The position numbers and the translations under genes are program-made. 64,000 nt of DNA from Prochlorococcus marinus subsp. marinus str. CCMP1375 (lineage in GTDB: Bacteria > Cyanobacteriota > Cyanobacteriia > PCC-6307 > Cyanobiaceae), in the NCBI RefSeq assembly GCF_000007925.1, contig NC_005042.1, positions 1,116,001-1,180,000 of the forward strand, read 5' to 3'. Below the pieces are notes generated by a model. That model had not been told where the DNA came from, searched no databases, and worked only from the letters and a program-made list of their open reading frames with translations. Of the stretch, positions 148-60,992 are shown one piece after another (position 1 is the stretch's first letter; each line of letters opens with the position of its first letter).

Positions 148-149
148 AA

Positions 150-266: not shown

Positions 267-383
267 TTAGGCTTTTAAGACTATTTAAGTCATAGCAGAA
301 AACGTTAGATCAAGCAGAATATTCATTTCTCTTTCCATTATTTGTTTAAAACTATATGCAAGGTTATATAGGAAGGTAAAACC

Positions 384-437
384 ATGAAAAAAACAAGCAT
401 AAAGGATGTTTCCTTGGATTCAGAATCAAGCAAATAA
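384..437 (+). CDS. possible 17-residue microprotein
   Basis: A 17-codon frame (starts MKKTSIKDVSLDSESSK) follows a GGAAGG sequence at 371-376, a reasonable ribosome binding site. There is no other support; it is listed because the ribosome-site spacing is good. Confidence 0.12.
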   Translation: MKKTSIKDVSLDSESSK

Positions 438-463
438 ATATAGGAAGCTCTAATTCTTCTTAA

Positions 464-724
464 TTAATTATTGAGTTCTTTTTCCGCGCACTCTATAGCG
501 GAGTTTTGATCATTCTTACCTTCATCAACAATTGCTGTTAAAGCACAATTACAAAACGCTTCTATAGCTGTTTCAGGAACACCAATTACAGCAGGGTTTG
601 ATTTTGAAGCAAGAATGCAATCTTTGAATTGATCTTGTGGGAAAGCATTCACTTTTGGAGAAAAAGAAACCATCATCAAAAAAGAAAACCATACCAAAGT
701 GAAATTCAAGAATAATTGCGTCAT
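464..724 (-). CDS. small secreted cysteine-containing protein, unknown
   Basis: This 86-residue protein has a hydrophobic N-terminus (about residues 3-27, ending PKVNAF) that looks like a signal peptide. The mature part is short and acidic with cysteines at about 36, 58, 60 and 79, suggesting disulfides in the periplasm. No family is recognised. Several other small proteins in this window share the design of signal peptide plus a few cysteines. Confidence 0.6.
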   Translation of the reverse strand: MTQLFLNFTLVWFSFLMMVSFSPKVNAFPQDQFKDCILASKSNPAVIGVPETAIEAFCNCALTAIVDEGKNDQNSAIECAEKELNN

Positions 725-903
725 TAATTTAAAAGGCTGAGAGGTAGATAAATATCTTATAATTACTAATAAGGTTATTAATATGAAGAGACACCTTATT
801 TAATTTAAATCTTTAAAAAATATTTTAGGAACCTAAGTGTTCTTAATAATAGCTTCTTAAAGAATGAGTAAGGTCAAGTCCTTACATTCAAACCATAAGT
901 AAA

Positions 904-2016
904 TTATATTGTTGCCAATTGCTGTGCATGCTCATCCCAAAGAATATATTCAAAACAACCTGGAATATCACTGATTTTTAGATATTTTGCATTAACAAGT
1001 AGGTGTTTATTTCTAATATGACAAGCTCTCAAATTATAATTAGGTATACGGTCACATAAATGGTGCATGCTATGGAAGGAAATGTCAGCAAGGAACCAAT
1101 TCAATAGTCTAGGTATGTCTAAGTTGCTACTCCCATCAACTGCACCAAGTATGGCACTCCATTCATTACTGCCATTAGCGTAAGAACCTTCAAAATTGTG
1201 CTGAACGAAGAATATACAAATAAAAATAGCGGCTGAAGCCGTCATTATTATCGAATAGCAACTCCAAAAAAGACCAGCTCCTAGCCATCTACTCATAAGA
1301 ATCCAACTGATGATAACAATGACATTGTTAGCAATTAGATCTATCAACTCTCCAGAAGAATTTCCATATCCTGAGTAATTTGCTTGAAATCTTGTAGAGA
1401 AAGAAAAGAGATTTGCGAAATCTCTTTTTAGTAATTTATTACAAAGTTCAACCAATATAGACCAAATAAAATGAGCAATGGCATTTATCAATGTCAAACG
1501 AGGTTTGATTACAAGATAAAAGAAACCTCCAGGGAATAACATCAACCAATGACGACTAATTGAATAAAGAAACTGATTTATTTTTGATAGTGCTTGATAA
1601 TCCTCTAGAGTTATAACGTCAACAGGACCTCGATACACCTCCCAATTCCCATTGTGGCGATGATGGAAAGCATGGTCACGTGACCAAGGGTATTGAGGTA
1701 TTGCATTGAGAGTCCCAAGTAAAAATCCTGTTATACGATTTAACCTCCGAGAACGAAAAAGCGAACCGTGACCACAGTCATGCATCAAAGAAAATGCTCG
1801 TGATGACAACAAAGTTAAGATGGCAAGTACAGGAATCAATCCAAGTGCTCTAAAAGGAGTCTTAAAAGATGATTGATCAATCCAAGCTATTAAGATCCAG
1901 AGAAGGGCTACTGGAATAATTGTCGTTGATACTTGCCAAAATGCTCTCGCATTACTGCGCTTCAAATAAGGAGTAATAACAAAATCACTACGTTGAATTG
2001 TTTGATGATTTCTCAA
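904..2016 (-). CDS. membrane fatty acid desaturase (DesA-like)
   Basis: A 370-residue integral membrane di-iron desaturase that should introduce a double bond into acyl lipids of the membranes. The three histidine boxes are present: HDCGH at about 79-84, HAFHHRH at 115-121 and HSMHH at 315-319, plus an extra QHNFEGS at 272-278. Hydrophobic segments lie between the boxes as expected. It opens with TTG; no nearby in-frame ATG is available. It is clearly different from the second desaturase at 5144-6250, so the two probably act at different positions or on different lipids. Regiospecificity cannot be read from sequence. Confidence 0.85.
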   Translation of the reverse strand: MRNHQTIQRSDFVITPYLKRSNARAFWQVSTTIIPVALLWILIAWIDQSSFKTPFRALGLIPVLAILTLLSSRAFSLMHDCGHGSLFRSRRLNRITGFLLGTLNAIPQYPWSRDHAFHHRHNGNWEVYRGPVDVITLEDYQALSKINQFLYSISRHWLMLFPGGFFYLVIKPRLTLINAIAHFIWSILVELCNKLLKRDFANLFSFSTRFQANYSGYGNSSGELIDLIANNVIVIISWILMSRWLGAGLFWSCYSIIMTASAAIFICIFFVQHNFEGSYANGSNEWSAILGAVDGSSNLDIPRLLNWFLADISFHSMHHLCDRIPNYNLRACHIRNKHLLVNAKYLKISDIPGCFEYILWDEHAQQLATI

Positions 2017-2371
2017 CTATTTAACTCCCTTCTAATTACAAGTTTGTCAAAAAGCAATTCCAAGTAAAACTTGCCAAATGAATGCAAAGATTGATTTTCT
2101 AAAAAACAAGTCATTACTATAGGGTTTTGCTAGAGAAAGTTGCTTGATTCCACAAGGGATTTTCTTTATTGGCAAAGCATTGCAATAAGAAGTTCGGAAA
2201 ACAACGAATCAATCAGACCAATTAACTTTAAACCAAAGGGGCTGTTTGACGCCAATTAATTAAAAAGATATAAAAACAAAGCATCTTTTCTTAGATAGCA
2301 AAGCAATTTATAAAATATCTCTGAAAAATTCAGTCTATCCATAAATGATTTTTGAATAAATTTAAATTCTA
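2017..2371. other. intergenic, no gene seen
   Basis: This is 355 AT-rich bases upstream of the TTG-started desaturase and downstream of the next minus-strand gene. I see no convincing frame, hairpin or RNA gene. It presumably holds the desaturase promoter. Confidence 0.4.
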
Positions 2372-2641
2372 TTAAAAGCTTTTAGTCTCTCTAATAACAA
2401 AACTACTCTTCGTAATCAAATCAGATCCATCTATTTCTAAGCCTTTTACGCTAGATATTTCTCCTTTGAGACCTTCGATTTTTAATTGCTCAATCATTGT
2501 TTGAATGACCTGAGCTTCCACTAATTTCTGATCAATTCGATCAGGGGTGATTTTTTCAAATAACTTACCTGCTTTAGCTTTTACAACTTCAGAAGAATTC
2601 GTTATCTTTAGCAAAATCATTTTCAAAAGCATAGATAACAA
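2372..2641 (-). CDS. hypothetical small protein
   Basis: This 89-residue protein has a hydrophobic start (MLSMLLKMILLKI) and then a charged, probably helical and strand-forming body (KLVEAQVIQTMIEQLKIEGL). No family recognised. Composition is typical of a real cytosolic or peripheral membrane protein. It stands alone in its direction with wide gaps on both sides. Confidence 0.5.
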   Translation of the reverse strand: MLSMLLKMILLKITNSSEVVKAKAGKLFEKITPDRIDQKLVEAQVIQTMIEQLKIEGLKGEISSVKGLEIDGSDLITKSSFVIRETKSF

Positions 2642-2739
2642 TAAAATAGTTCATTAGTCACACATACGCTGAAGATTTTATTAGATTTAATGTCATTTCA
2701 AATAGTGAATTAGATGAATTCTTTACCCCTCCTTTAACG

Positions 2740-2865
2740 TTAAAGCCAGTCAACCTTCATTTTCTTATAATATTCTTGTGCCAATTTCTCAGCTTCGCTC
2801 TTAAGGGGTTGAGGCTTTTTCTTTACCCCTTTTGCTTGGATTTGTGTTCTTGATGTTGTAATCAT
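2740..2865 (-). CDS. small basic protein, 41 residues
   Basis: A 41-codon frame opens at ATG 2863-2865. It encodes a lysine-rich peptide starting MITTSRTQIQAKGVKKKPQP and ending in the helix-like EYYKKMKVDWL. The composition, with an ordered C-terminal amphipathic stretch and aromatic residues, is protein-like rather than random. Function unknown. Confidence 0.45.
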   Translation of the reverse strand: MITTSRTQIQAKGVKKKPQPLKSEAEKLAQEYYKKMKVDWL

Positions 2866-3023
2866 GATAAGAAAAGCCCCTATGTATCTGTTAATACAGA
2901 AATTTTCTCATAAAATCGTGCCTTCTAGTTGCTGTATTTATTAAATAAAACTAATTTTTCTTACCTCCTGATACAAATCCCATTTTGAGTTTCTATTAAT
3001 TCAAATTTTCCAGCGAAATTCAA

Positions 3024-3491
3024 TCAATCTTTCAACCAAATTGCCAAACTTTTCTTCGGATCTGATAATTCCTCAATTGATGTATAAAAATAATCATTCC
3101 ATCCAATAGAAGGCAACCCAGCAAAAAGCATTAGATTAAGAGGATATTCTTCAGAATCGCTACAGCGACGAAAGTCATCACGAAACAAAAATGTCGGCTT
3201 ACCTAATGCAATAGCTGCACCAAGCTCAATCATTACCCCTTCATCAGGGGGGGTGCCATTAACAACCGCAAGTATTCCATCTGAATTCCTTACATCACGT
3301 AAATCTGCAAGTGCAATGTCATGAGCCCAACCTGGCTGAAGGTTTTCATATTGAGCATTACGACTAAAAGGCTCCCAAACTTCTGCCCCTAGGTCTTCAA
3401 GTGCTGCAATAAACTCAGGCAGAAGATTCTTTTTACACTGTTTTGAAAATCCATATGGAGAAGCTAAGTAAATAATTTTTCGAGTCATCAA
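3024..3491 (-). CDS. nucleoside 2-deoxyribosyltransferase family protein
   Basis: This 155-residue protein matches the nucleoside deoxyribosyltransferase fold: IIYLASPYGFS at 6-16, an Asp-containing strand near 65-76 (DVRNSDGILAVV) and DEGVMIELGAAIALGKP at 83-99. In this family a glutamate, probably E89, is the catalytic nucleophile. The enzymes move deoxyribose between bases or hydrolyse deoxynucleosides. It follows the phosphoribosyltransferase gene by a single base, so the two form a nucleobase salvage operon. The start is one of two consecutive ATG codons. Confidence 0.8.
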   Translation of the reverse strand: MMTRKIIYLASPYGFSKQCKKNLLPEFIAALEDLGAEVWEPFSRNAQYENLQPGWAHDIALADLRDVRNSDGILAVVNGTPPDEGVMIELGAAIALGKPTFLFRDDFRRCSDSEEYPLNLMLFAGLPSIGWNDYFYTSIEELSDPKKSLAIWLKD

Positions 3492-3492
3492 A

Positions 3493-3879
3493 TTAATTCC
3501 TGTTCAATCGATAAAACTCTTCTTCTTCCTTGGCGAACAAAGGTTCCTCCCAGGGGAAAACAATCCATTCTTCAGGTGCACAAACTTCTATAGCATTCCA
3601 CCATCCGCATTCAACTTTACTTAACCAAACAAATGCTGTGACATCAGGAATTTCTCTAAATGTATCTAATGTCAATCCTGTTTCATAAACATCATCAACT
3701 ACCAATGAGTTAGGCGCTGGGTCCTGCAAAAAGGGAATTCTCAATATATGGCTAATTGAAACTGCTAGGCAAAGTCCTCCTCTAGGAACTCCATAAACGC
3801 CTGAGAAATCCTTATCCCTACATAAATAGGCAATTTTCTGAACACAGCTATTAAATTCTTCCCAGCTTAGAAGTCGCAT
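3493..3879 (-). CDS. phosphoribosyltransferase family protein
   Basis: This 128-residue protein carries the PRPP-binding loop of type I phosphoribosyltransferases, SLVVDDVYETGLTL at 58-71, and a VPRGG loop at 31-35 like those of xanthine/hypoxanthine phosphoribosyltransferases. It is short for that family, with a reduced hood region. It is the first gene of a two-gene unit with the deoxyribosyltransferase and probably converts a free purine to its nucleotide. The exact base is not evident. Confidence 0.75.
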   Translation of the reverse strand: MRLLSWEEFNSCVQKIAYLCRDKDFSGVYGVPRGGLCLAVSISHILRIPFLQDPAPNSLVVDDVYETGLTLDTFREIPDVTAFVWLSKVECGWWNAIEVCAPEEWIVFPWEEPLFAKEEEEFYRLNRN

Positions 3880-3967
3880 AAATATAGTCAGCTTAAAAGC
3901 TTTTAAAAAATGAAAAAGATTCTATTTCTAGAAAGTGCTCTAAGAGAGAATCAAGCATTAGCAACAT

Positions 3968-4459
3968 TCAGTTGCTAAGCATCAAATTCTTCAACCTTAT
4001 AACAGGGGTTTTCCACAAAGCCCAGAGTAAAAAACCTAATTCACTACGCTTTACCTTAATGATCGTTCCTTTAGAAGTTACAAACGTTTTTTCAATGACA
4101 AGTCCATTCTTAATGGTAATTTTCTCTACATTGCCAACAAATCTTCCTCTAGTCCAATCAATATTTTCTTTGAAAGGATTTAATTGTTTACCTTGTGTAA
4201 ACAATCCAAAATTAATATAACTCAGCGTTGACCATGCCTTCCTGTTTGAAATAGATACAGGTGGATTTGTACTTGATTTGGCTGATAAATCATGCTTTGT
4301 TCCATCATGATAAGGATTGGAATTTTCACTTACTAAAAGAATTTTCGAACGAACCTGTACTTGAATCAACTTATAGGTCGATTCAAGATGCTCACGAATC
4401 GCATGATATTTAGATTGAATATCACTTTGTTTTTCCTTCACATAGGTTCTAACGACCAT
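3968..4459 (-). CDS. hypothetical protein
   Basis: A 163-residue, mostly hydrophilic protein opening with MVVRTYVKEKQSDIQ, probably helical at the start. The C-terminal part (about 110-155) alternates charged and hydrophobic residues like a beta sheet. No motif recognised. It is upstream of and same-strand with the salvage pair but separated by 88 bases, so co-transcription is possible. Confidence 0.55.
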   Translation of the reverse strand: MVVRTYVKEKQSDIQSKYHAIREHLESTYKLIQVQVRSKILLVSENSNPYHDGTKHDLSAKSSTNPPVSISNRKAWSTLSYINFGLFTQGKQLNPFKENIDWTRGRFVGNVEKITIKNGLVIEKTFVTSKGTIIKVKRSELGFLLWALWKTPVIRLKNLMLSN

Positions 4460-4743
4460 AAGTTTTGCTTATAACTACTCAGTTTTAACAACTCTATTCA
4501 TACTTTCAAGGCATATATAAGCTTATTTTAACAATGCAATCAATCTCACATTCATTTGGAAAAATCGAAGAAGTCTTATAAATAAAAGGCAATCTATTAA
4601 ATACTCATGCATTATCTACTTTGAAGAGTGTATAGCCAGAGTTCATAAATGAATTAAGGATTCAACAAATCAGTCATTATGGTAGCAAGAGAAGAAGAGC
4701 TCTGAAGTATCAAAAGGGTCTCTAACTTTTAAATCTCTTAATT

Positions 4744-4944
4744 TTATAACCTACTCTCAGTCAAGCAAGAAGGAGCAACAAAAGGTGACTTCCAAGAATT
4801 CCAAATACATTTCATTCGATTTTCTGCACATCCATTAGCATCTTTAGATGTACATTGCTTAGCAAAGCCAACTAAGAAATCACTTACCAAGCTACCAATA
4901 ATTACAGCACAAACAATTTGAATAAAGCTTAAAGTCTTCTTCAT
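4744..4944 (-). CDS. small exported cysteine-rich protein
   Basis: From the ATG at 4942-4944 the product is 66 residues: MKK, a hydrophobic stretch and then a cysteine-containing tail (QCTSKDANGCAENRMKC, later SCLTES). An upstream in-frame start ten codons earlier exists, but the MKKTLSF start gives a classical signal-like N-terminus. Four cysteines in about 30 residues suggest disulfide stabilisation or a metal site outside the cytoplasm. Family unknown. Confidence 0.5.
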   Translation of the reverse strand: MKKTLSFIQIVCAVIIGSLVSDFLVGFAKQCTSKDANGCAENRMKCIWNSWKSPFVAPSCLTESRL

Positions 4945-5143
4945 AAGAAAATACTTGATAAAAAGCAATACCAATCATGTTATACCTAATTTAATGTGAT
5001 GTTGATCAAAAGAATTTTTTAAGCTCGTCCGATTTTCATTATATGAAAATCTCATTTGTATTTAATACTCATCAACAAATCACTATTTCTATAAAATTTC
5101 TTAGCTTTAGAATTATATGTAATAGAAAAACACATGCTATCTA

Positions 5144-6250
5144 TTAATTTAGATTTTTTTCCCAAAGATATCTAGAACTTTGACCATCAGCCTTTACGGC
5201 TACACAATTACTAGCAACACTCCAAAGAGCCTTATGTATAGGCGTTGGATTAAAAAGGTAAACTTTAGGGAATGCTTTCTTAATTGCACGAGTAGCTTCT
5301 ATTGCATGGTAATGAGGAATAGTTGGGGCTATATGATGAATGACATGAGTTGAGCCAATATGGTGATGCAAAAAGTCTAGAATTTTCCCATACGGGCGAT
5401 CAATTGACAAAAAGGCCCCTCGCATAAAAGAGAAATCCTCTTCTCCTAAATGAGGAACATCTGAATCAGTGTGGTGAAGCCATGTGTAGACAACAAGCCA
5501 ACAATTAACTACTAGTAAAGGTCCAACATACATAGTCAAAACAGATGCTATACCAAAGGACCATGCCCAATTAAAAAGAATAATTAAAACCACTGCAATT
5601 CCACAGTCAGACTTCCAGACTTTCTTTGACCAAGTTGATGGCCACAATTTTTTAGAGAAAGGTTCTCTTGGCCAAAAATGATTAGACATCCCATACTTAG
5701 GGCCACCAGTTTTACCAGCCAACAAATAGGCAGGCCAACCTATTATCAAATGCATCAATAACTGCATTGCTCCAAAGGCAACTTTCCCTATAGACCTAGA
5801 AAATGCTATTTCCTCTTCACCACCAGCCTGTTCACTAATACCATTGCCACCAATTACTAAAGGCACATGGGTCTCCCCTTCAGTTATATGATTAGTAAAT
5901 CTATGGTGAACAGAGTGAGAGCGTTGCCAAGAAAAGTAAGGGACTAAAAGTATCGTATGTAGAAAATATCCAATAACTGTCTCTAATCTACGATTATTAG
6001 AAAAAGCCCCATGTCCACATTCATGAGCAATAACCCAAAAGCCCATGGCAGTAGTACCTGAAACCAAGGCATATATAATCCAGACCAATGACATCGAGGG
6101 TGTATAAGGGATAGTAAGTCCTATCGCAACGACGATTACCTGGATTAGAATTGACCGAAAAAGGTAAGCAAGAGATTTGCTGGTCTGACGGGTAAAGCAT
6201 TGGCGTGGAATAACCTTTGCAATTGATGGCATTGTTGGAATATCAGACAT
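5144..6250 (-). CDS. desA: delta-12 type fatty acid desaturase
   Basis: An integral membrane acyl-lipid desaturase of about 368 residues. Histidine boxes are HECGHGAF (about 76-83), HSVHHRFTNH (about 112-121) and HVIHHIAPTIPHYH near 300, the arrangement of cyanobacterial DesA and plant FAD2-type enzymes. The reaction would convert monounsaturated to diunsaturated chains. A TTG 17 codons upstream (6299-6301) keeps the frame open, but MSDIPTMPS at the ATG is the more natural start. It is separated by about 3 kb of small genes from the other desaturase. Confidence 0.85.
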   Translation of the reverse strand: MSDIPTMPSIAKVIPRQCFTRQTSKSLAYLFRSILIQVIVVAIGLTIPYTPSMSLVWIIYALVSGTTAMGFWVIAHECGHGAFSNNRRLETVIGYFLHTILLVPYFSWQRSHSVHHRFTNHITEGETHVPLVIGGNGISEQAGGEEEIAFSRSIGKVAFGAMQLLMHLIIGWPAYLLAGKTGGPKYGMSNHFWPREPFSKKLWPSTWSKKVWKSDCGIAVVLIILFNWAWSFGIASVLTMYVGPLLVVNCWLVVYTWLHHTDSDVPHLGEEDFSFMRGAFLSIDRPYGKILDFLHHHIGSTHVIHHIAPTIPHYHAIEATRAIKKAFPKVYLFNPTPIHKALWSVASNCVAVKADGQSSRYLWEKNLN

Positions 6251-6632
6251 TGTTACTTCTAATGCCTGTCCATTAAGGCCAGAGAAACAAACGTTTTTCA
6301 AACTCTTAGGCTAAAGCGAAAATATTTTTATCCAATTTAAGGCTAAGAGGGGCAGAGAGTAAATATATTCAAAAGTGCGTCTATAAGACCATCTCTCAAA
6401 GATATCTTTTTTATAAAAAAGCAAAATATTGTTTTCCTTTTATCAAATCAAATCACAAGCATGACAATAATGAAGTCTTCCGTGTGAGTATTAATAACTA
6501 GATCCAAGTAATGGCAATGCATTATAAGGTATTTTTATAACATTTAATTAAGTCTCATAAAGAACTCTAAACGTAGTGCATAATTCTCGATTTTATCGAT
6601 TATTTATATGAAAGCCTAAAAATGAATTATTC
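6251..6632. other. divergent intergenic region
   Basis: These 382 AT-rich bases separate the minus-strand desaturase from the plus-strand small membrane protein and should hold both promoters. I see no stable hairpin or extra reading frame. Confidence 0.35.
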
Positions 6633-6854
6633 ATGAATCGTTCTATGAAAGGATTTTTATATATTTCCGCATGGGTAGTTTCTTGGCTATTGTTCAGCTC
6701 AATAATTAACGCGGGTTTTATTACTACAAATGTCTATGAAGCAGGAGGGAAAGGAGGAATATTAACTTTATTTATTAGTGCGATCATTGCAATTGCTGGA
6801 GCCTTTTCCTTATACAAGGAAGTTTTTCCAAATGATCTTCCTAAAAGCAAATAA
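6633..6854 (+). CDS. small two-helix membrane protein
   Basis: A 73-residue protein with two clear hydrophobic segments (about 7-30 and 43-61) joined by a glycine-rich turn (EAGGKGGI) and a short polar tail. It resembles small picocyanobacterial membrane proteins of unknown function. ATG start; no recognised family. Confidence 0.6.
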   Translation: MNRSMKGFLYISAWVVSWLLFSSIINAGFITTNVYEAGGKGGILTLFISAIIAIAGAFSLYKEVFPNDLPKSK

Positions 6855-6989
6855 AACTATACTACTCCTATCAACAGACTCCTTATCAAATCCCCCTTCT
6901 TACAAAAGAGATCATTCTAAAGATGTCTTTTGGTAAGCAACTTAGAATGATAATGCTTGAGAAGGCTTCATTAAAGAGGTGTATCTTAC

Positions 6990-7322
6990 TTATAACGTCT
7001 CTAAAAAGTTTGCTATAAGAGATAAGGAATTTAGGCTGTCCAGTTTTCTTTGTGATTCAGAAATAATCCGTCTTGCATCAGGTACACAATCATGTAGTAA
7101 AGAGTTCCCTTCTGCGTACTCAGCCATAGCAAACTCTATAGACCTTTTTATCCTTAACTTAGGATCATCCTTAAGGGCTTCAGTCTCAAGAAATTGCTGA
7201 TGTCCAATAATTATAGAAAGGAGTTGATTAATAGCACGTTTAGCAGTTTCTCTCTCGGAAGTAACAGAAAGTAATTGGCTTATAGAATTACTTTCCTTAC
7301 CGTTCTTAGTCTCATCTCCCAT
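6990..7322 (-). CDS. hypothetical helical protein
   Basis: This 110-residue protein is polar and predicted mainly helical, with no membrane segment or catalytic motif. It contains EFAMAEYAEGNSLLHDCVPD near 63-82. The overlapping plus-strand frame has poorer composition, so the minus strand was chosen. Confidence 0.5.
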   Translation of the reverse strand: MGDETKNGKESNSISQLLSVTSERETAKRAINQLLSIIIGHQQFLETEALKDDPKLRIKRSIEFAMAEYAEGNSLLHDCVPDARRIISESQRKLDSLNSLSLIANFLETL

Positions 7323-7811
7323 GATATGAATAAAAATGTAATTCTAGTATGAATTTAAATTAGTATTTTTAATTTAAATTGCAATGCTCTAAAACATGCT
7401 ACTAGAAGGTTGTATGGAGTTGCCCAATTCTTAATCAGCGCATTTCGCTCTTTTGATAAAGTTGATTGTCAATAAATATCCAATATCAATAAAAACGAGG
7501 CATTTATAAGAGTATAGGTATATATACGGAAGGATTCCATGGAGGCAGTGTCACGTGCAAATAATTTTACAAACAAGTAATCTAGTGTATACCTACTTGA
7601 TGTATAAAAATTAGAGACTAGAATAATAAAAATACTTTAAAGAGAATGGAACAAAACCCTAGGCATTCTGTACTAAGCAGCAACATTCTAAGATCTAGCA
7701 ACCGAGGAATCACTACTTACGAGCAGACATAGCTAACATCAGGCCACGACAAGTTAAATACTCAAACAACCAGTCTACACCTCACAAGCAACAAATCCAT
7801 CAAATAGCATA
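7323..7811. other. long non-coding stretch
   Basis: About 490 bases without a credible gene; only very short frames occur (for example 13 codons from 7539). I see no tRNA-like or strong hairpin structure. It lies in the small-gene accessory zone and may be decayed sequence. Confidence 0.35.
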
Positions 7812-7835
7812 ATGGTTTTCCCTGTACTCAGATCG

Positions 7836-8009
7836 ATGACAGAATTACTTCTAGCTGTAAAGCAGGAAGAAAAAAGGAAGGTGGAAAGGGGGTTCGCGAA
7901 CAGAGATGCTATGCATAGATATATAAGACTTACGGCGCAAATGAATAAGAAAGTTAAGCGCAAAGGGATTAAAAAGCTAATAGAACAGTCACAAAGAAAG
8001 GTTGCTTAG
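7836..8009 (+). CDS. small basic helical protein
   Basis: A 57-residue peptide from the ATG at 7836, rich in Lys/Arg/Glu (VKQEEKRKVERGFANRD, then AQMNKKVKRKGIKKLIEQ). It looks like one or two amphipathic helices, possibly nucleic-acid-binding. An upstream ATG at 7812 adds eight residues. The antisense frame is hydrophobic and looks like a shadow. Function unknown. Confidence 0.4.
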   Translation: MTELLLAVKQEEKRKVERGFANRDAMHRYIRLTAQMNKKVKRKGIKKLIEQSQRKVA

Positions 8010-8172
8010 CTGTAACGGACAAACAGTAGAACTAGCTGTTAATTCACTTTCAATATCTAAGTTTTAAGCAAAGGAATGTCATAAAGACATTTTTGCATTG
8101 CTGTTAATTCTGAGAATATATCAAAAGAGTATCATGCCTCAAAAGTCCCACTCTCTCATCGCTTTCCCACGA

Positions 8173-8226
8173 CCATGACCATGATCATATATAGTATATT
8201 TGTACTATATATGATCATGGTCATGG
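8173..8226. repeat. perfect 24-bp inverted repeat with 6-base loop
   Basis: The left arm 8173-8196 and the right arm 8203-8226 are exact reverse complements around a six-base spacer. The arms begin CCATGACCATGATCAT and continue into an AT-only section next to the spacer. There is no T-run after it, so it is not a normal intrinsic terminator. As RNA it would fold into an uninterrupted 24-bp hairpin; as DNA it could extrude a cruciform. Confidence 0.9.
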
Positions 8227-8417
8227 ATTCGCCATCTCCTCTGTATGCTGTCTTTACAGTAGAGAGCTTAAGATTAGTTTCAGCATCTGCTTTTTATTGG
8301 TACAGCCTAAGTCTTGGGAACAACGTTGCATCAATGCAGCTATTCAGAGCCAAAAAGGCGGAGACCCAGAAAATAACCTTACAAAGAAATATTCAACTTG
8401 CTTTGTGTAATTCCTAG
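8223..8417 (+). CDS. doubtful small reading frame after the hairpin
   Basis: The frame stays open from inside the inverted repeat (8175) to 8417. A conservative start is the ATG at 8223, giving 64 residues (MDSPSPLYAVFTVESLRL onward). The first part of the longer version is only the translated palindrome, which argues against the upstream start. No family is recognised. Confidence 0.22.
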   Translation: MDSPSPLYAVFTVESLRLVSASAFYWYSLSLGNNVASMQLFRAKKAETQKITLQRNIQLALCNS

Positions 8418-8542
8418 TTTCTCTAACAATTCATGAGCACCAAGCACATTTAACACTTTTCAAATGATTCTACTAAAAGTGAATCTCACTCATAGAGGCC
8501 TTAGGCCTATTAACTACTACCAAAAACATTATTTCTCTCATC

Positions 8543-8803
8543 ATGAGATTATTATCAATGAATCCTGAAGGTTGGCTAATTGAGCCAAAGGGGAAGTGGT
8601 TGCTTCTCTTCCATAAAGATCCAGTGTCCTTACAAAAACTACCTCAATATTACATTGACAAATGGGATGTATCACCGATTTATACTCCCTTGACATTTAT
8701 CAATCGTAGAAAAGTTGGACTTGAACCTGCTATAGAGACATGGACAGAATTACTAGGTAATGGTTGGAAGAAAATTGAGCACCAATTTGGAGAAGTAGCG
8801 TAA
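8543..8803 (+). CDS. DUF1651 family protein
   Basis: An 86-residue protein with the DUF1651 layout: GWLIEPKGKWLLLFHKDP near the start, a middle segment with LTFINRRKVGLEPAIETW, and a terminal LLGNGWKKIE. DUF1651 is a small family largely restricted to marine picocyanobacteria, often present in several copies; its function is unknown. Assignment is from recall of the W/GW pattern. Confidence 0.7.
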   Translation: MRLLSMNPEGWLIEPKGKWLLLFHKDPVSLQKLPQYYIDKWDVSPIYTPLTFINRRKVGLEPAIETWTELLGNGWKKIEHQFGEVA

Positions 8804-8899
8804 GGCACACATTCGTCACAATATGTCTCCAATTTGTAAGACATAATTTGAGATGCCCCCCTCTTTATGGTAGATATAATAATAGGCAACTCGTATTCA

Positions 8900-9454
8900 A
8901 TGTCTCAACTAACTATCAAATTAAGTGCTAAGGCAGATGCCTTAATAGCCCAACTTCAAAAAGAAATTTTTAATCGGCGTCGTAAAAAGATAACAGCTGC
9001 AGGAGTGGTTGAATCATTAGTCGAAAGTGGTGCAAAATCCCAATCAGACAAGCGCTACTCGTCTTCTTGGAAGAATCTAATCAAAGATATTGAGAAAGCT
9101 GCAAAAGTATCTGAAGTACATGGTAACAAGCCAGCTAATGTTAGCGCTGATGAGTGGGCCATGATCTTGAGCCATCGCACTCGAAAAGGCACTAAAACCA
9201 CAAAGGAGTCACCTGTAAACAAAACATCTAAAACAAGATCTAAAGCAAGTAAATCTAAAGCAAGTAAATCTAAAGCAAGTAAATCTAAAGCTTCTACTGT
9301 TACAAGTGCAGTAGCAAAAAAAGCTGTAACTAAAAAAGCTCCTGCAGTCAAAAAAGCTCCTGCAGCAAAAACAACCTCAACTTCTAGACCAGCCAGACGT
9401 GCAAGAAAAGCAACTAAAGCAACTAAAGCAACTCCACAAACTGTTTTAGCTTAA
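8900..9454 (+). CDS. lysine/alanine-tailed putative DNA-binding protein
   Basis: From the ATG at 8900 the product is 184 residues. The first half (SQLTIKLSAKADALIAQLQ, then RRRKKITAAGVVESLVESG) resembles a ribbon-helix-helix or small helical domain. The second half is a low-complexity basic tail of SKASKSK repeats followed by KKAPAVKKAPAAK and RKATKATKA, like histone H1 or bacterial H1-like proteins. An upstream start at 8867 would add 11 residues. A nucleoid or regulatory role is inference. A basic open frame continues in +1 after the stop. Confidence 0.6.
   Translation: MSQLTIKLSAKADALIAQLQKEIFNRRRKKITAAGVVESLVESGAKSQSDKRYSSSWKNLIKDIEKAAKVSEVHGNKPANVSADEWAMILSHRTRKGTKTTKESPVNKTSKTRSKASKSKASKSKASKSKASTVTSAVAKKAVTKKAPAVKKAPAAKTTSTSRPARRARKATKATKATPQTVLA
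9239..9291 (+). repeat. 15-bp tandem repeat inside the basic tail
   Basis: The unit TCTAAAGCAAGTAAA occurs three times in perfect tandem (9239-9283) with a partial fourth copy to 9291. It encodes the repeated SKASK block. Unit length is a multiple of three, so copy-number change would keep the frame. Confidence 0.85.
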
Positions 9455-9516
9455 AAAACGTCGTCAGATCCGTAAAAGCGGGTTAAGAGGTGCAATCCCT
9501 CTTGCTGACCTTATTT

Positions 9517-10104
9517 TTAAAAAAGAAAAAGAATTAAACCTGCTAGAAATCCAGTAAAATGGCCGCTTAAACTTACTCTTGGGAACAAGGAGAAAATGAA
9601 TCCTAGGCCTGTTAACACAGACATGGCATTCCTTACTTGAAGATTTCTAGATAGTCCTATATCAAAATGAAGGAAATTATTTTTTCCATAAATTGAACTC
9701 AACAAAATAAAAGCATCTACTCCATAGAGTAATCCGCTAAATCCTATTAGCATAGATAGAGGGTTATTGATGAGATATATATCTAGAACCCACTGAAGAA
9801 AAGACTGAATTGGTATTAACAAAAGCAAGAGGACTATAAAAAGACTTGAGCTTTTGAGCCGTAATTGCATAAAGAAATATCTAACCACGACTATTCCAAA
9901 AGCGTTAGCTAGTAGATGGCGTAAATCAGCATGAATAAAATGCGTGGAGATAATTCGATATGGTTCTAGTAGAAGTCTTCCGGAGATATACGCAAAATCA
10001 AATTTATTTATGATTCTCAGTACATCAGTTGCTATAAAAACTATGGCTAGCAAAGAAAAAGTAATCAGATATTGCCAATCATCTTTTGAAGTCCTTTTTA
10101 TCAC
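9517..10104 (-). CDS. rhomboid family intramembrane serine protease
   Basis: A 195-residue protein with about six membrane helices. Family marks are HFIHADLRHLLANAFG at 55-70, the catalytic serine in GFSGLLYG (S123) and the catalytic histidine in SGHFTGFLAG (H182). Rhomboids cleave membrane-spanning substrates inside the bilayer; the substrate here is unknown. It lies just downstream of glutathione peroxidase on the same strand (9-base gap), so the two are probably co-transcribed. Confidence 0.85.
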   Translation of the reverse strand: MIKRTSKDDWQYLITFSLLAIVFIATDVLRIINKFDFAYISGRLLLEPYRIISTHFIHADLRHLLANAFGIVVVRYFFMQLRLKSSSLFIVLLLLLIPIQSFLQWVLDIYLINNPLSMLIGFSGLLYGVDAFILLSSIYGKNNFLHFDIGLSRNLQVRNAMSVLTGLGFIFSLFPRVSLSGHFTGFLAGLILFLF

Positions 10105-10113
10105 CTTTGAAAA

Positions 10114-10593
10114 CTATGAAGACAACGCAACTTCAATTGCTGTTATCAATTCCTCACTTGATGGTTCAACGCTAGGTTCGAATCTTGCAATAACATTACC
10201 ATCCTTGCCGACTAAGAATTTTTCAAAGTTCCAAGAAACATCTCCTTTAGGTTCAACTTTATTGAGTGTTGTATAAGGCTCAGTTGTTAGACCTTTTGCA
10301 TGAACCTTGTTAAAAATTTCAAATGTGGTTCCGTATTTTACCGAGCAAAACTCCTTGATCTCCTCGATAGTCCCGGGCTCCTGACCAGCAAAATCATTAC
10401 AAGGGAAGGCAAGAACACAAAAACCGTTTTTCTTATACTTTTCAAAAAGTTTCTCCAAACCTTTGTACTGAGGAGTATTTCCACAAAGGCTTGCTACATT
10501 TACTATTAATAAGACGTTGCCTAAATAATCACCAAGATTTTTCTTTTCTCCATCTGCAGTTTCTACTACTGTTTCTTTTACGTTGATCAACAT
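10114..10593 (-). CDS. glutathione peroxidase
   Basis: A 159-residue thioredoxin-fold peroxidase. Signature elements are NVASLCGNTPQYKGLE with the peroxidatic cysteine C37, FPCNDFAGQEPG at 63-74 with a second cysteine, and SWNFEKFLVG with the catalytic Trp/Asn pair near 120. The site is a cysteine rather than selenocysteine form, as in cyanobacterial NADPH/thioredoxin-dependent enzymes that reduce lipid hydroperoxides. Length is normal for the family. Confidence 0.92.
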   Translation of the reverse strand: MLINVKETVVETADGEKKNLGDYLGNVLLIVNVASLCGNTPQYKGLEKLFEKYKKNGFCVLAFPCNDFAGQEPGTIEEIKEFCSVKYGTTFEIFNKVHAKGLTTEPYTTLNKVEPKGDVSWNFEKFLVGKDGNVIARFEPSVEPSSEELITAIEVALSS

Positions 10594-11230
10594 GATTTAA
10601 TTGTTATGTAGTGAGGAGATAGAAATAATCTCATCCCGAGAGAAGTAATTTTTATACAAATCAATCCAGATGTCAATTGATTATTGAACAAAGCTTGCTT
10701 GTCCAGAAAATCTTAGAGCCAGGAGACAAAGCAATTCTCAGCATAAACAAATTCAATAAGGACTATTTTGTTAAGAATCTACTAGTTAAAGGCGGTATGG
10801 CAATAGAAATAAACAGCGCTAGCTCTCATGAAAATTAATTTCCTACTTATTCCATTTACCTTCTAAAAGACCTAATAGCCAAAGCTAAGTTTGCGTCGTC
10901 AAAAATAATTTGCTAATAATATGAAAATTTTTACACTCAAAAGAATTTCCATGGAATTTTAAAATGAAGATTTGTGCTGATCTAATTAAATTTTTAGTTA
11001 AGAAAAGTTAGTTCTAACGAACTATAATTTATCAATAAATTGTGATTAAGTAATTAATGACTAGTTAATAAACTATAAACCCTCAAGCAAGTGTAGAACA
11101 ACTTGAAATCACTTTCGATCTTGATTACCTCTTTTCACCCCTCTATAAAGAGCAACTACAAAAAAACAGCCAATAAGAAAATAAGCAACTCGCTCTAGCA
11201 GTAGAGTTATTGGATTACCAACAAGTTCTG
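10594..11230. other. long gene-poor stretch with a possible coding remnant
   Basis: About 640 bases. Most is AT-rich and holds no frame. From about 11086 a protein-like plus-strand frame without a start codon reads PQASVEQLEITFDLDYLFSP, then reaches a TAA, then continues in the same frame into the small gene at 11231. This looks like a decayed or stop-interrupted gene. Confidence 0.35.
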
Positions 11231-11347
11231 ATGTTATTTCCATCAAGATTCAAAGAGGTTATAAAAATGCATGCTAACTTAGATTTAGAATATCACCTAA
11301 CAAAAATCGCACTTGATATATTCAAAGTATCTACTAATAAGCAATAA
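11231..11347 (+). CDS. 38-residue small protein or remnant of a broken gene
   Basis: The frame opens at ATG 11231 and reads MLFPSRFKEVIKMHANLDLE, then ends LTKIALDIFKVSTNKQ. A second ATG at 11267 is preceded by an AGAGG sequence. The same frame upstream is also protein-like except for one in-frame TAA near 11178, so it may be the C-terminal piece of an older, longer gene. Confidence 0.3.
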   Translation: MLFPSRFKEVIKMHANLDLEYHLTKIALDIFKVSTNKQ

Positions 11348-11425
11348 TTGTACTAAGGTCAATATCCTATAAAGACAATTTGGGGCTTAAAGGCTATAAG
11401 ATTAATTTGAATTATCATTAAAGTT

Positions 11426-11827
11426 ATGGCAATTGCTATTAGACCCATAATTTCAGCAAAAATATTTGAAGAAGCTATAGAAAGTGCTGCATTATCACAA
11501 AGCGAGCACGAATTAATTGACTATATACGCTACAAAGGAGTGTTCTCACAACCTAGTATTGTTAAAGAACTCAGATTAAATCCAAAACCACCTGTTTTAT
11601 CAATTCTTTGTGAGACATGTAGAAAGATTGGGCATCATATACCAGATCATTTCATTGCAATTAGGGCATGGTCAGAAGCAATAAGTGAGCATGGTGTTCG
11701 TTGGGATGGCGATCTCATTTGCAGTACAGCACGAAATATAGAGGGTGAACCCTTAACTCCAGAAGCAAGAACTGTTCCTTATGAAATACTAGTGGTACAT
11801 AAAGAACTTTTTACAGGTCTTGGTTGA
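11426..11827 (+). CDS. conserved-looking hypothetical protein
   Basis: A 133-residue soluble protein. It has a helical N-terminal part (SAKIFEEAIESAALSQSEHE), two cysteines in LSILCETCRKIGHHIPDH near 60-77, and a WDGDLICSTARNI segment. The CxxC plus histidines could be a metal or redox site, but no family is recognised. ATG start. Confidence 0.55.
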   Translation: MAIAIRPIISAKIFEEAIESAALSQSEHELIDYIRYKGVFSQPSIVKELRLNPKPPVLSILCETCRKIGHHIPDHFIAIRAWSEAISEHGVRWDGDLICSTARNIEGEPLTPEARTVPYEILVVHKELFTGLG

Positions 11828-57898: not shown

Positions 57899-57985
57899 GG
57901 AGAGGTGGCTGAGTGGTCGAAAGCGAACGACTCGAAATCGTTTGACGGGTAAAACCGTCCGTGGGTTCGAATCCCACCCTCTCCG
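57899..57985 (+). tRNA. trnS-CGA: tRNA-Ser (anticodon CGA)
   Basis: An 87-base class II tRNA. The acceptor stem GGAGAGG (57899-57905) pairs with CCTCTCC (57978-57984), with G as discriminator. The anticodon stem-loop is AACGA-CTCGAAA-TCGTT with CGA, which reads UCG serine. A long variable arm (GACGGGTAAAACCGTC) and the T-arm GTGGGTTCGAATCCCAC are present. CCA is not encoded. The 3' end is duplicated downstream at 60982-60992. Confidence 0.97.
57975..57985 (+). repeat. left direct repeat at the tRNA 3' end (attL-like)
   Basis: CACCCTCTCCG forms the last 11 bases of tRNA-Ser and recurs exactly at 60982-60992. Such repeats are left when elements integrate at tRNA genes and restore the tRNA end. 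Confidence 0.7.
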
Positions 57986-58267
57986 TTTTAACAACAAATC
58001 AGGATTGGTCAGGACTGTTCAGAATGCACAGTCTTTTTTCTATGACTGAGGTTTTAGAGGAATTGATTTAACCAGAAGAAATCAGGATAGTTTATCTTTG
58101 GTGATTGTGTGTTCTGGTTATGCTCTGGTTAGGAATTGTGTTTGTTCTGGTCTGATCTATGTACTGAGTAAGTCTTGAACATTCCTGATTCGTAATTGAT
58201 CCGTTTGTTTTTTGATGGACGTAATCAATATCCAATTGATATTTCTTAATTATACTATTGATTAATT

Positions 58268-58828
58268 TTAGTCTGAGTCGAGTAAATATTTAAAATATTT
58301 TAGAAGAATTTTCCTCTTGGATATGTTTTGTTCCATATGTTCATTTACTACATCTGCTATTGCTTTAGGGAAAGTATTCTTAGGTAATGCTTTATTTAAT
58401 TTGCCATTGCTACCATTAATTCTATAATTTTCACGGAGTTTCCTGGAGACTGAAATTGATTCAGAATCATCAAAATGATCATCTAGAAGAAGTTTAAGTA
58501 ATTGATAGTCAATTACAGCAACGCCTTCTTGATCAGTTATTAATAAAACAAATAGATAGTCATTTTCTTTGACTAAAGTTTCTATTTCTTCTTGATTTTT
58601 CTTTCTAAAAGTAAATCTCCAAGGTGAAATTCGTTTTCTTGAGTGTTTTAAAAAGAGTCCAATTTTTAATGAATTTTTTGTTGTTGGACTTGAAAAGATA
58701 ATTTGATATGCTGCTTTAGTTCCATTAAAATTAATCTTATAGTAAATATCTTTTTGAAGTTTTTCAATTTCTTGAAGAAGAGAGGTTATTGTCGCCCCAT
58801 GTAGCAATTCTTCATTTGATAAGGACAT
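58268..58828 (-). CDS. unknown protein paired with the Z1 ATPase
   Basis: A 186-residue soluble protein. It starts with a helix (NEELLHGATITSLLQEIEKL), then an alpha/beta core: AAYQIIFSSPTTKNSLKIGL, KRISPWRFTFRKKNQEEIET and a strongly hydrophobic strand with turn DYLFVLLITDQEGVAVIDYQ. The ISPWRFTF and DQEGVAVID pieces suggest a nuclease- or sensor-like domain, but I cannot assign a family. It shares a 52-base divergent promoter region with the Z1 gene in the same tRNA-bracketed element. Confidence 0.6.
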   Translation of the reverse strand: MSLSNEELLHGATITSLLQEIEKLQKDIYYKINFNGTKAAYQIIFSSPTTKNSLKIGLFLKHSRKRISPWRFTFRKKNQEEIETLVKENDYLFVLLITDQEGVAVIDYQLLKLLLDDHFDDSESISVSRKLRENYRINGSNGKLNKALPKNTFPKAIADVVNEHMEQNISKRKILLKYFKYLLDSD

Positions 58829-58880
58829 TACTAAATTTTGTCTAAAGTTACTTTAGGATTATTTTTTGAAAGTTCAGTCC

Positions 58881-60800
58881 ATGATTACACCAGATGAAAT
58901 AATCTCTGAATTAGATCAGAAAAAATTAAATAATCGATATACAAGTCGAATCAAAGCATTAAATTTAAAGGGGTTAAATACAGAAATAATTGAAAATGGC
59001 GTTAAAGAAGCAGTAGATGTAATAACTAAAAAAAATGGTAAATCCTTTGTCGTTTATGGGGAACCTCAATCTGGCAAAACGGAATTCATGATTGCGTTAA
59101 CTTGTAAATTATTAGATCAGGGATTTAAAACTATATTTATTGTTGTAAATGACAACACTGAGTTAGAGGTGCAAAACTTTGATCGTTTTATGAATGCTAG
59201 TCAATTAAATCCTGCGCCTCTAAGGGATTCTCAGTTACATGATTGCCTACCTGCGCAACTAAAACAGGATATAAAACGTGTTATTTTCTGTCGAAAGAAT
59301 TCTAAAAGATTGGATAAATTGATTATCAATTCCAGAAATTTTAAAGATAGAATAATTATTGATGATGAAGCGGATTTTGCTACACCAGATACAAATATAA
59401 ACAAAGCGAATAAAGAAGCGACAAAAATAAATAATTTATTAGAAAAATTGCTTCAAGCAGATAAGGGAGGAATATATATTGGTGTTACTGCAACGCCTGG
59501 AAGATTAGACCTTAACAATACATTTTTAAATAGATCTGATCATTGGGTATTTTTAGACAGTCATGAATCATATAAAGGAAGGGCGTTCTTTTTTCAAGAT
59601 GATTTAAATAATAATCAAAGATATATTTTAAATACATTGCCACCTGTTTATGATGATCCAAGATTTTTAAGAAAGGCGGCAATTAGATTCATTCTTAGAA
59701 CATCATATCTCAATTATAAGCAGGCAGATTTAACAGCATATTCAATGTTAATTCATACAGCAGGTAGAATTAGGGACCATGAGGATGATAAAAAAGTCAT
59801 AGATAATCTGCTTTATAAATTATCAAATAAGGACGAGAAGAGAATTAATGAGATGATAGAATTAGCAAAGGAAATATTCCCTGATTTTCCTGATGAGGAT
59901 ATAAAAGATATCATATCCTTCGCATTAAATTATATTGGTAAAAATCAGGTTCTAATTATTAATAGTGGTAATGATAGCGGTAATGTCATGAGAGCATGCC
60001 AACCTCAGGCGTTATTCACATTTGCAATAGGTGGCAACATTGTTTCTAGAGGACTTACTTTTAGCAATCTTTTATCATTTTTCTTCTCAAGAGGCGTTAA
60101 AGGAAAAATGCAGCAAAACACTTATATCCAAAGAGCGAGGATGTTCGGTTCAAGACCTTATGCTAAATATTTTGAATTATGTGTCCCCGCGGAAATCTTT
60201 GAACAGTGGGCAGATGTATTTCAAGATCACGAATTGTCATTACGATTCGCAAAATGTGGCGACCTTGCTCATGTGCAGGGGGAAGGAAATCGAGCAGCAG
60301 ACTCAAGATCAATAGATAAATCGAATGTACAAGTAGAACTCCGAGAAAGACCAATAGGAGAAATTTTCTCCTTGACTAAGTCTTTAGAGGATTTTCTTGT
60401 AAACGAATTTAATTCTGAGTTAAAACTTTCGTCGACTGATATTATTCGGCAATTAAAATCTAAACAGGTTATAAAAGATATTCACTTCCCAAATACGGTT
60501 CTAAGTTATATCGATGAATTGTCAATATCTGGGAGAAAGGATCAAATTATCCTTCTCTCTGATGGAGGATCATCTATATATAGTGGTAAAAATATTAGTC
60601 AGTGGAATGATGACCTGCTTTTTAGAGAAAGAGGAGGATTGATTCAGGCATTTATTAATAAGAGAAAGGACTTTTTAGGTAAAAAGCATTATATATTTCC
60701 TGTTAAAAGTATAGATGGAACAAGGTGTAGATTCTTGTATAGAGCAGAATTAGGACATACTATTCTGAAAAACTTTAAGAATAAAAAGAAACTTTATTGA
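58881..60800 (+). CDS. Z1-domain SF2-like ATPase, putative defence protein
   Basis: A 639-residue protein from the ATG at 58881 (a TTG five codons earlier is possible). The ATPase has Walker A VVYGEPQSGKTEFMIALTC (about 57-75), Walker B RIIIDDEADFA (about 157-167) and motif III YIGVTATPGR. The Z1 domain follows near 380-450: FAIGGNIVSRGLTFSNLLSF, QQNTYIQRARMFGSRPYAKY and ELCVPAEIFEQW. Z1 proteins occur with MORC/GHKL ATPases, nucleases and methylases in restriction-like systems; none of these partners is here. Confidence 0.85.
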   Translation: MITPDEIISELDQKKLNNRYTSRIKALNLKGLNTEIIENGVKEAVDVITKKNGKSFVVYGEPQSGKTEFMIALTCKLLDQGFKTIFIVVNDNTELEVQNFDRFMNASQLNPAPLRDSQLHDCLPAQLKQDIKRVIFCRKNSKRLDKLIINSRNFKDRIIIDDEADFATPDTNINKANKEATKINNLLEKLLQADKGGIYIGVTATPGRLDLNNTFLNRSDHWVFLDSHESYKGRAFFFQDDLNNNQRYILNTLPPVYDDPRFLRKAAIRFILRTSYLNYKQADLTAYSMLIHTAGRIRDHEDDKKVIDNLLYKLSNKDEKRINEMIELAKEIFPDFPDEDIKDIISFALNYIGKNQVLIINSGNDSGNVMRACQPQALFTFAIGGNIVSRGLTFSNLLSFFFSRGVKGKMQQNTYIQRARMFGSRPYAKYFELCVPAEIFEQWADVFQDHELSLRFAKCGDLAHVQGEGNRAADSRSIDKSNVQVELRERPIGEIFSLTKSLEDFLVNEFNSELKLSSTDIIRQLKSKQVIKDIHFPNTVLSYIDELSISGRKDQIILLSDGGSSIYSGKNISQWNDDLLFRERGGLIQAFINKRKDFLGKKHYIFPVKSIDGTRCRFLYRAELGHTILKNFKNKKKLY

Positions 60801-60981
60801 CCTTTCTAACTTTGTCTGATCTTTTCGAGATGGTATCAACTCTAATTCGCTTAAGTGGAAACGTACAAGGTTGTTTAATTTGTATAAATTGTTCTGGTTT
60901 ATGTTCTGGTTTTATTCAAGAAATCTGAAAAATACTTTTCATAGACGTTCAGGACTGGTCATACTGAACTTGTTCTAAGGA

Positions 60982-60992
60982 CACCCTCTCCG
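60982..60992 (+). repeat. right direct repeat (attR-like)
   Basis: CACCCTCTCCG matches the last 11 bases of the tRNA-Ser gene exactly. The sequences on either side differ from those at the tRNA, as expected for an integration boundary. Confidence 0.7.

What the first reader, a model, noticed from the sequence alone, without database searches (positions are those of the whole stretch)
57975..60992. Minimal tRNA-Ser-bracketed element carrying only a Z1 ATPase and an unknown partner
The 11-bp tRNA end repeat, shared TCAGGACTG boxes and repeated GTTCTGGTT motifs at both ends mark a 3-kb unit. Cargo is a lone Z1-domain ATPase with a divergent 186-residue protein and no integrase. It may be a compact anti-phage system moved in trans, or a remnant of a tycheposon-like element.
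Basis: partly seen in the sequence, partly recalled or inferred. Interest (0 to 1): 0.82.

Follow-up and report, generated by a model that had tools for sequence, protein, structure and literature searches.

The report
Integrase-less tRNA unit carrying Z1 defence pair
A 3-kb piece of mobile DNA in a marine Prochlorococcus sits next to a serine tRNA gene, has no recombination enzyme of its own, and carries only two genes that look like a DNA-attacking anti-virus pair; the same pair sits in two other such small units at different places in other Prochlorococcus genomes.

Summary
A 3,007-bp unit (57975-60981) lies between two exact copies of the tRNA-Ser(CGA) 3' end. It holds only a Z1-domain SF2 ATPase and a divergent 186-aa protein. 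One of ten related tRNA-Ser loci (G201) is an empty site whose tRNA runs directly into the window's right junction; none of 13 other same-genus genomes has the genes. Both ends align with those of a larger element at the same tRNA-Ser in a sister genus (G015) that encodes a tyrosine recombinase and excisionase-like protein. The window's genome has no relative of that recombinase. The unit is therefore a non-autonomous relative, probably moved in trans. The same pair also fills integrase-less units of 3,381 bp (tRNA-Asn) and 2,974 bp (3' end of argJ). The argJ ends recur with a Type IIG restriction enzyme as cargo, so ends and cargo are exchanged. The small protein is predicted to have a PD-(D/E)XK fold without the catalytic acids; wherever its family was found with enough contig, a Z1 gene lies next to it. 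Best reading: a two-gene Z1 motor plus PD-(D/E)XK-fold partner defence module on a minimal, trans-mobilised integrative unit. Anti-phage activity and mobility are untested.

The parts
57899..57985 (+). tRNA-Ser(CGA), intact; attachment gene (its 3' end is attL)
   Evidence: ARAGORN
57975..57985 (+). left core repeat CACCCTCTCCG (tRNA 3' end)
   Evidence: exact 11-bp direct repeat, two copies in the window
57986..58265 (+). left end of the unit: box TCAGGACTG (58009-58017), arm-type motifs GTTCTGGTT 58111-58119, TCTGGTT 58124-58130, GTTCTGGTC 58144-58152
   Evidence: aligns with the left end of the integrase-bearing G015 element, internal score 199 vs null maximum 70; motif excess
58268..58828 (-). 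186-aa Z1 partner; family phrog_28860; predicted PD-(D/E)XK/Hjc-like fold lacking the canonical D and E
   Evidence: homologues adjacent to Z1
58829..58880 (.). about 50-bp divergent intergenic (shared promoter region, inferred)
   Evidence: divergent order with 46-56 bp gaps also in G396 and AG-892-G09
58881..60800 (+). Z1-domain SF2 ATPase, 639 aa from ATG (644 from TTG 58866)
   Evidence: Pfam Z1 9.6e-20, ResIII 8.5e-5; PADLOC Helicase_II 8.2e-42; motifs QSGKT, DDEAD, TATP, ARMFG invariant in 10 homologues
60801..60981 (+). right end of the unit: arm doublet GTTCTGGTT 60891-60899 and 60903-60911, box TCAGGACTG 60949-60957
   Evidence: aligns with the right end of the G015 element, internal score 92 vs null maximum 51; doublet pattern hits both ends plus one other site in the genome
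60982..60992 (+). right core repeat CACCCTCTCCG (attR)
   Evidence: the sequence from here on directly follows the tRNA in the empty site of G201

Best explanation
This is a non-autonomous integrative unit of 3,007 bp. Shown: it lies between duplicated tRNA-Ser 3' ends, it is absent from an otherwise matching site, and its two ends are those of a family of elements at this tRNA that in other genomes encode a tyrosine recombinase. Inferred: it was inserted, and may be excised, by such a recombinase acting in trans, which binds the TTCTGGTT arms and recombines at CACCCTCTCCG. Its only cargo is a two-gene module: an SF2 ATPase with a Z1 domain and a small protein with a PD-(D/E)XK-type fold (predicted). 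Inferred: the two form a complex that engages foreign DNA. The Z1 protein is the ATP-driven motor or sensor (as N.CglI/N.NgoAVII), and the partner is the DNA-recognition subunit or a degenerate or non-canonical nuclease. Carrying it lowers phage success in the host.
For: Empty site in G201: the tRNA is followed directly by the right junction and its flank (48 nt at 87.5%, E 4e-9, then further flank matches). The genes are absent from 13 same-genus genomes. Both ends match the G015 element at the same tRNA-Ser, which carries a 437-aa tyrosine recombinase (PF00589 4.5e-7), an excisionase-like ORF and a C5 methyltransferase. The window genome has only a tyrosine recombinase of a type found at similar length in every same-genus genome checked and no relative of the G015 one. 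The same pair fills integrase-less units at tRNA-Asn (3,381 bp; G396 = AG-402-K10) and at argJ (2,974 bp; AG-892-G09), with empty sites in most relatives. The small family lies beside Z1 in all ten loci with both genes intact, across cyanobacteria and virus-derived contigs. Context: inside a CBASS-bearing island, directly followed by a DNA methylase (L082). Fold: Z 9.2, rmsd 3.0 over 117 residues to Hjc, with the next rows the same superfamily. SF2 motifs invariant. Published relatives: N.CglI/NgoAVII are SF2-Z1 ATPases that drive cleavage by a partner (PMC4267653).
Against: No phage or mobility experiment exists. The integrase acting on these ends was not found in the same genome. The partner lacks the D and E of PD-(D/E)XK, so no nuclease is identified in the unit. 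No methyltransferase accompanies it here, so self/non-self discrimination is unexplained. The Z1 model is only moderate (pLDDT 63.8). Only one precise empty site for the tRNA-Ser unit was found, and it is in a genome whose tRNA region carries other units.
Confidence: 0.62

Rival explanations
1. A decayed remnant. A full element like that of G015 inserted at this tRNA, then lost its integrase and excisionase by deletion. The unit is now stuck and kept only because the two genes are useful.
For: The ends are those of an integrase-bearing element, and no matching integrase exists in the genome. G178 carries degraded integrase pieces beside the same tRNA, so decay does happen here.
Against: The same two genes sit alone in two further units of almost the same size at other attachment genes. 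Integrase-less units also stand in tandem in G166 and G201. One decay event cannot explain this; three convergent ones would be needed.
Confidence: 0.27
2. The two genes are not for defence. The SF2-Z1 ATPase and its DNA-binding partner serve the element itself, for example its replication, excision or packaging.
For: They are the only long genes in three minimal mobile units, and a DNA motor would suit such a role.
Against: Related elements with the same ends carry other cargo instead, namely a Type IIG restriction enzyme or a C5 methyltransferase. The pair also occurs outside such units, next to CBASS genes, before a DNA methylase, and in Nostocales chromosomes. The Z1 protein matches the PADLOC defence profile Helicase_II in 10 of 10 members.
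Confidence: 0.12
3. A classical restriction system: the partner is an active nuclease with unusual catalytic residues, cutting unmodified DNA as CglI or NgoAVII do, with host modification supplied elsewhere or not needed.
For: In L082 the pair is directly followed by a DNA methylase gene. PD-(D/E)XK fold, with K61 invariant and an acid in helix 1 (position 7) in 8 of 10.
Against: No acid is conserved at the expected positions of beta-2 and beta-3 (Y41 and a hydrophobic residue instead). No methyltransferase lies beside nine of ten pairs.
Confidence: 0.25

Closest known systems
Tycheposons (Hackl et al. 2023, Cell 186:47; cited through PMC10872708)
   Same: Marine Prochlorococcus, insertion at a tRNA 3' end with a duplicated tRNA end, cargo carrying, ends shared with an element encoding a tyrosine recombinase
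   Different: No recombinase; 3.0 kb against a stated 4-200 kb; defence-like rather than nutrient cargo. The original paper was not available here.
CIMEs (integrase-less elements flanked by att sites, described for streptococcal ICE relatives; my own knowledge)
   Same: Non-autonomous unit with functional-looking attL/attR of an autonomous family; tandem stacking at one site
   Different: No conjugative partner here; ends belong to a different integrase family; the same cargo is found behind three different sets of ends
CglI / NgoAVII restriction systems (PMC4267653)
   Same: SF2-Z1 ATPase (N-protein) paired with a DNA-acting partner
   Different: Partner is 142-194 aa with a predicted PD-(D/E)XK-type fold, not a PLD-B3 nuclease; no C5 methyltransferase; divergent genes
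Hachiman HamAB (PMC12278908)
   Same: Two genes: SF2 helicase plus a nuclease-fold protein; a relative with an inactive nuclease (AbpA) is noted in that paper
   Different: HamB is a Ski2-like helicase (no Z1 domain is mentioned in that paper); HamA is DUF1837 with an intact D-E(X)K motif; the small protein here matches no Pfam family
MZA system, MzaC (PADLOC, NCBIfam)
   Same: Z1 domain protein; MzaC profile hit E 4.3e-12, far below the family cut-off (44.9 vs 1500 bits)
   Different: Other MZA genes absent

Membership tests
Site-specific integrative element at a tRNA gene | direct repeat of the tRNA 3' end bounding the unit | tested here: met
   CACCCTCTCCG at 57975 and 60982
Site-specific integrative element at a tRNA gene | empty site in relatives | tested here: met
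   G201
Site-specific integrative element at a tRNA gene | ends shared with an integrase-encoding relative | tested here: met
   G015 element, both ends, integrase
Tycheposon (autonomous) | tyrosine recombinase within the element | tested here: not met
   only the two ORFs in the unit; no relative of the G015 integrase in the genome
Tycheposon (autonomous) | size 4-200 kb | tested here: not met
   3,007 bp; range taken from PMC10872708
Tycheposon (autonomous) | one of the seven tRNA genes described for Prochlorococcus | not testable with these tools
   original paper not held
CglI/NgoAVII-type ATP-dependent restriction | N-protein: SF2 plus Z1 domains with Walker motifs | tested here: met
CglI/NgoAVII-type ATP-dependent restriction | R-protein with PLD nuclease and B3 domain | tested here: not met
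   no Pfam family; predicted PD-(D/E)XK-type fold
CglI/NgoAVII-type ATP-dependent restriction | C5 methyltransferase beside it | tested here: not met
   no other gene in the unit
Hachiman | DUF1837 HamA with D-E(X)K | tested here: not met
   no Pfam or PADLOC HamA match; acids not conserved
PD-(D/E)XK superfamily | alpha-beta core fold | tested here: met
   AlphaFold2 pLDDT 82.8; Hjc Z 9.2, rmsd 3.0, 117 aligned, I-Ssp6803I Z 9.3; predicted only, Foldseek alone E >= 0.017
PD-(D/E)XK superfamily | catalytic D and (D/E)xK | tested here: not met
   Y41 invariant and hydrophobic residue two before invariant K61; positions inferred from strand order
MZA | full MzaABCDE set and MzaC above cut-off | tested here: not met
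   44.9 bits against a cut-off of 1500; single Z1 gene only

The most novel reading that the evidence does not exclude
Prochlorococcus carries a class of minimal (about 3-5 kb), integrase-less integrative cassettes dedicated to DNA-targeting defence. Attachment ends and cargo are modular: the same Z1 plus PD-(D/E)XK-fold pair sits behind tRNA-Ser, tRNA-Asn and argJ ends, and the same argJ ends carry either this pair or a Type IIG restriction enzyme. The cassettes are spread in trans by recombinases of resident or transient larger elements, and the pair is a new two-gene anti-phage system with a pseudo-nuclease subunit.
Probability: 0.42. Interest if true: 0.82.

Novelty: new variant of a known kind. 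Interest (0 to 1): 0.66.

Why it matters
If true, it shows how very small streamlined genomes acquire phage defence with minimal mobile baggage: cassettes that keep only ends and two genes and borrow a recombinase. It also names a conserved, apparently undescribed two-gene module (Z1 ATPase plus the phrog_28860 protein) that is small enough for a direct plaque test, and gives att sequences with a candidate integrase for a direct recombination test.

Tried and rejected
Single-protein scans of genome and viral collections found no relatives, nor did the first two-row small-protein alignment; Z1 alignments were needed. tblastn of the small protein against phage records: no match. PDB sequence searches for both proteins: no relative. 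Foldseek alone gave only weak hits for the small protein; the fold call rests on the second aligner. The end motif was not found in viral contigs. DUF2290 and PLD-B3 partners were considered and dropped: no Pfam match for the small protein. The left TCAGGACTG box overlaps a possible terminator hairpin (GACTGT...ACAGTC-T6), but the hairpin is not kept in G015, so it was not built on. The G537/G551 hits of the small profile (E 5.6e-5, 6.4e-4) lie in long ORFs and were not used. The roughly 389-aa tyrosine recombinase of the genome (G000:C1:500171) was considered as the acting integrase; it is not near a tRNA and every same-genus genome checked has one of similar length, so it is less likely. The original tycheposon paper was not held. 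The paper search for Z1 proteins by name was useless.

Full report
What the window is. The window lies in a complete genome of one contig of 1,751,080 bases.

The observation. tRNA-Ser(CGA) ends at 57985, and its last 11 bases recur exactly at 60982-60992, 3,007 bp away. Between them lie two genes, divergent across about 50 bp: a 186-aa protein (58268-58828, minus) and a Z1-domain SF2 ATPase (58881-60800, plus; PF10593 E 9.6e-20). The two non-coding ends share motifs far above chance: 16 shared 8-mers against a shuffle mean of 2.4, and five TCTGGT against 0.36. The doublet pattern occurs three times in the whole genome, and two of these are the two ends.

It is mobile. None of 13 other same-genus genomes has either gene. 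At the same tRNA-Ser in G201, the tRNA 3' end runs straight into the sequence that in the window follows the right repeat (CACCCTCTCCGCTTTTTTGAGG; 48 nt at 87.5%, E 4e-9, with further flank matches).

It belongs to a family with a recombinase. In G015, a sister genus, the same tRNA-Ser carries a 6.1-kb element between CACCCTCTCCG copies (core starts 887 and 7020 in L136). It has a 437-aa tyrosine recombinase (PF00589, E 4.5e-7), an excisionase-like 72-aa ORF, a C5 methyltransferase (PF00145, 1e-66) and a 520-aa neighbour. Its left end aligns with the window's left end (internal score 199, null maximum 70) and its right end with the right end (92, null maximum 51). A 53%-identical recombinase lies at the same tRNA locus in G116, and broken pieces lie beside the tRNA in G178. 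The window genome has no relative of it; its single PF00589 gene is of the roughly 388-aa type found in every same-genus genome searched. So the unit is non-autonomous. G166 and G201 have several successive CACCCTCTCCG copies bounding further small units.

The same cargo sits in two other minimal units. In many of 18 related genomes the tRNA-Asn lies close to the outer flank with the island missing. In AG-892-G09 the pair lies between repeats of the 3' end of the protein gene argJ (AATAGCGAATATAC), 2,974 bp apart. Seven of eight related genomes are continuous there; the eighth, G095, has a 5.1-kb unit at the same site. The right end of the G095 unit is nearly identical to that of AG-892-G09 (score 314, null maximum 58), but its cargo includes a 921-aa Type IIG restriction-modification-like protein (E 5e-120). 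The right ends of the tRNA-Asn and argJ units do not resemble that of the window's unit (scores 37 and 34, against 92 for G015). The G396 and AG-892-G09 proteins are 61-63% (Z1) and 45-57% (small) identical to the window's, with intact reading frames and dN well below dS (0.27-0.49 against 1.3-1.9, the latter near saturation). So cargo and ends have been exchanged.

The pair is a conserved module. A profile of the small protein found relatives in Nostocales-like cyanobacteria and in virus-derived contigs. Every one with enough contig had a Z1 gene directly adjacent (ten intact pairs; L093 is a degraded pair, L094 runs off its contig). In the four filamentous-cyanobacterial loci the Z1 proteins are only 23-26% identical to the window's, yet the partner is kept. 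All ten small proteins match phrog_28860, unknown function, and all ten Z1 proteins match the PADLOC profile Helicase_II. In L072 the pair lies near a CD-NTase and an E2-like gene; in L082 it is directly followed, with overlapping frames, by a DNA methylase gene; in L083 it is among prophage genes.

What the proteins probably do. The Z1 protein keeps its SF2 motifs in ten homologues (QSGKT, DDEAD, TATP, ARMFG), and its model, though moderate (pLDDT 63.8), matches SF2 helicases, the first being the HsdR motor of EcoR124I. The small protein gave a good model (pLDDT 82.8). The structural re-ranking gave I-Ssp6803I (Z 9.3), Hjc resolvases (Z 8.0-9.2, rmsd about 3.0 over 117 residues at best) and RecU: the PD-(D/E)XK superfamily. 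Foldseek alone was weak, so this is a prediction of fold, not proof. By strand order the catalytic D is replaced by an invariant Y41, and the E two before the invariant K61 by hydrophobic residues; K61, S63, W70 and R129 are (nearly) invariant, and an acid at position 7 in helix 1 is kept in 8 of 10. That suggests a DNA-binding pseudo-nuclease or a non-canonical one.

Mechanism, with its status. Shown: unit boundaries, empty site, shared ends, absence of a matching integrase, conserved pairing. Inferred: insertion and excision by a recombinase in trans; the pair as a complex in which the Z1 ATPase moves along or senses DNA and the partner recognises it; protection from phage. The nearest characterised relatives are the N-proteins of CglI and NgoAVII, SF2-Z1 ATPases that must hydrolyse ATP for a partner to cut DNA (PMC4267653). 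Hachiman is a two-gene nuclease-helicase analogue, and its paper notes a relative with a catalytically inactive nuclease (PMC12278908). The unit meets neither membership test fully.

Verdict. The added points are the empty site, the integrase-bearing relative with the same ends, the two further minimal units with the same pair at other genes, the cargo exchange at argJ, and the identity of the partner as a conserved Z1 partner with a predicted nuclease-type fold.

Noticed in passing
L062 (G166) and L068 (G201), oriented from tRNA-Ser: cores at 1160, 9495, 10668, 12510 and 1579, 2080, 4830: Tandem small units bounded by tRNA-Ser 3'-end repeats, with differing arm doublets (for example ATATGTTGGGGAT twice); some share a CAGGACTGGTC box.
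   Followed up: partly
L171 (G095) 268-5411: A 5.1-kb unit at the 3' end of argJ carrying a Type IIG restriction-modification-like protein, with a right end nearly identical to the unit that carries the Z1 pair in AG-892-G09.
   Followed up: yes
L072 (IMGVR 3300050335_000094) 1-11732: Virus-derived contig that is a dense defence region: subtilase plus AAA ATPase, HNH, CD-NTase, E2-like, the Z1 pair, PHP-ATPase.
   Followed up: partly
G364:C1:392987, G244:C1:366674, G258:C1:360361 and others: Several related Prochlorococcus genomes carry a different, about 900-aa Z1 protein (35-38% identity over the motor) without a detected small partner, often at a similar chromosome position.
   Followed up: no
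L136 1855-4723 (G015): C5 methyltransferase overlapping a 520-aa protein without any Pfam or PADLOC match: a likely restriction pair with an unrecognised nuclease.
   Followed up: no
G000:C1:500171-500590: A single tyrosine recombinase of about 389 aa near hemH and a cobO-like gene in the window's genome; every same-genus genome checked has one of similar length. Role unknown.
   Followed up: partly
L058 12975-14443 (G396): The neighbouring 2.1-kb unit at tRNA-Asn carries a pentapeptide-repeat-like protein and a small lipoprotein-like gene, again without an integrase.
   Followed up: no
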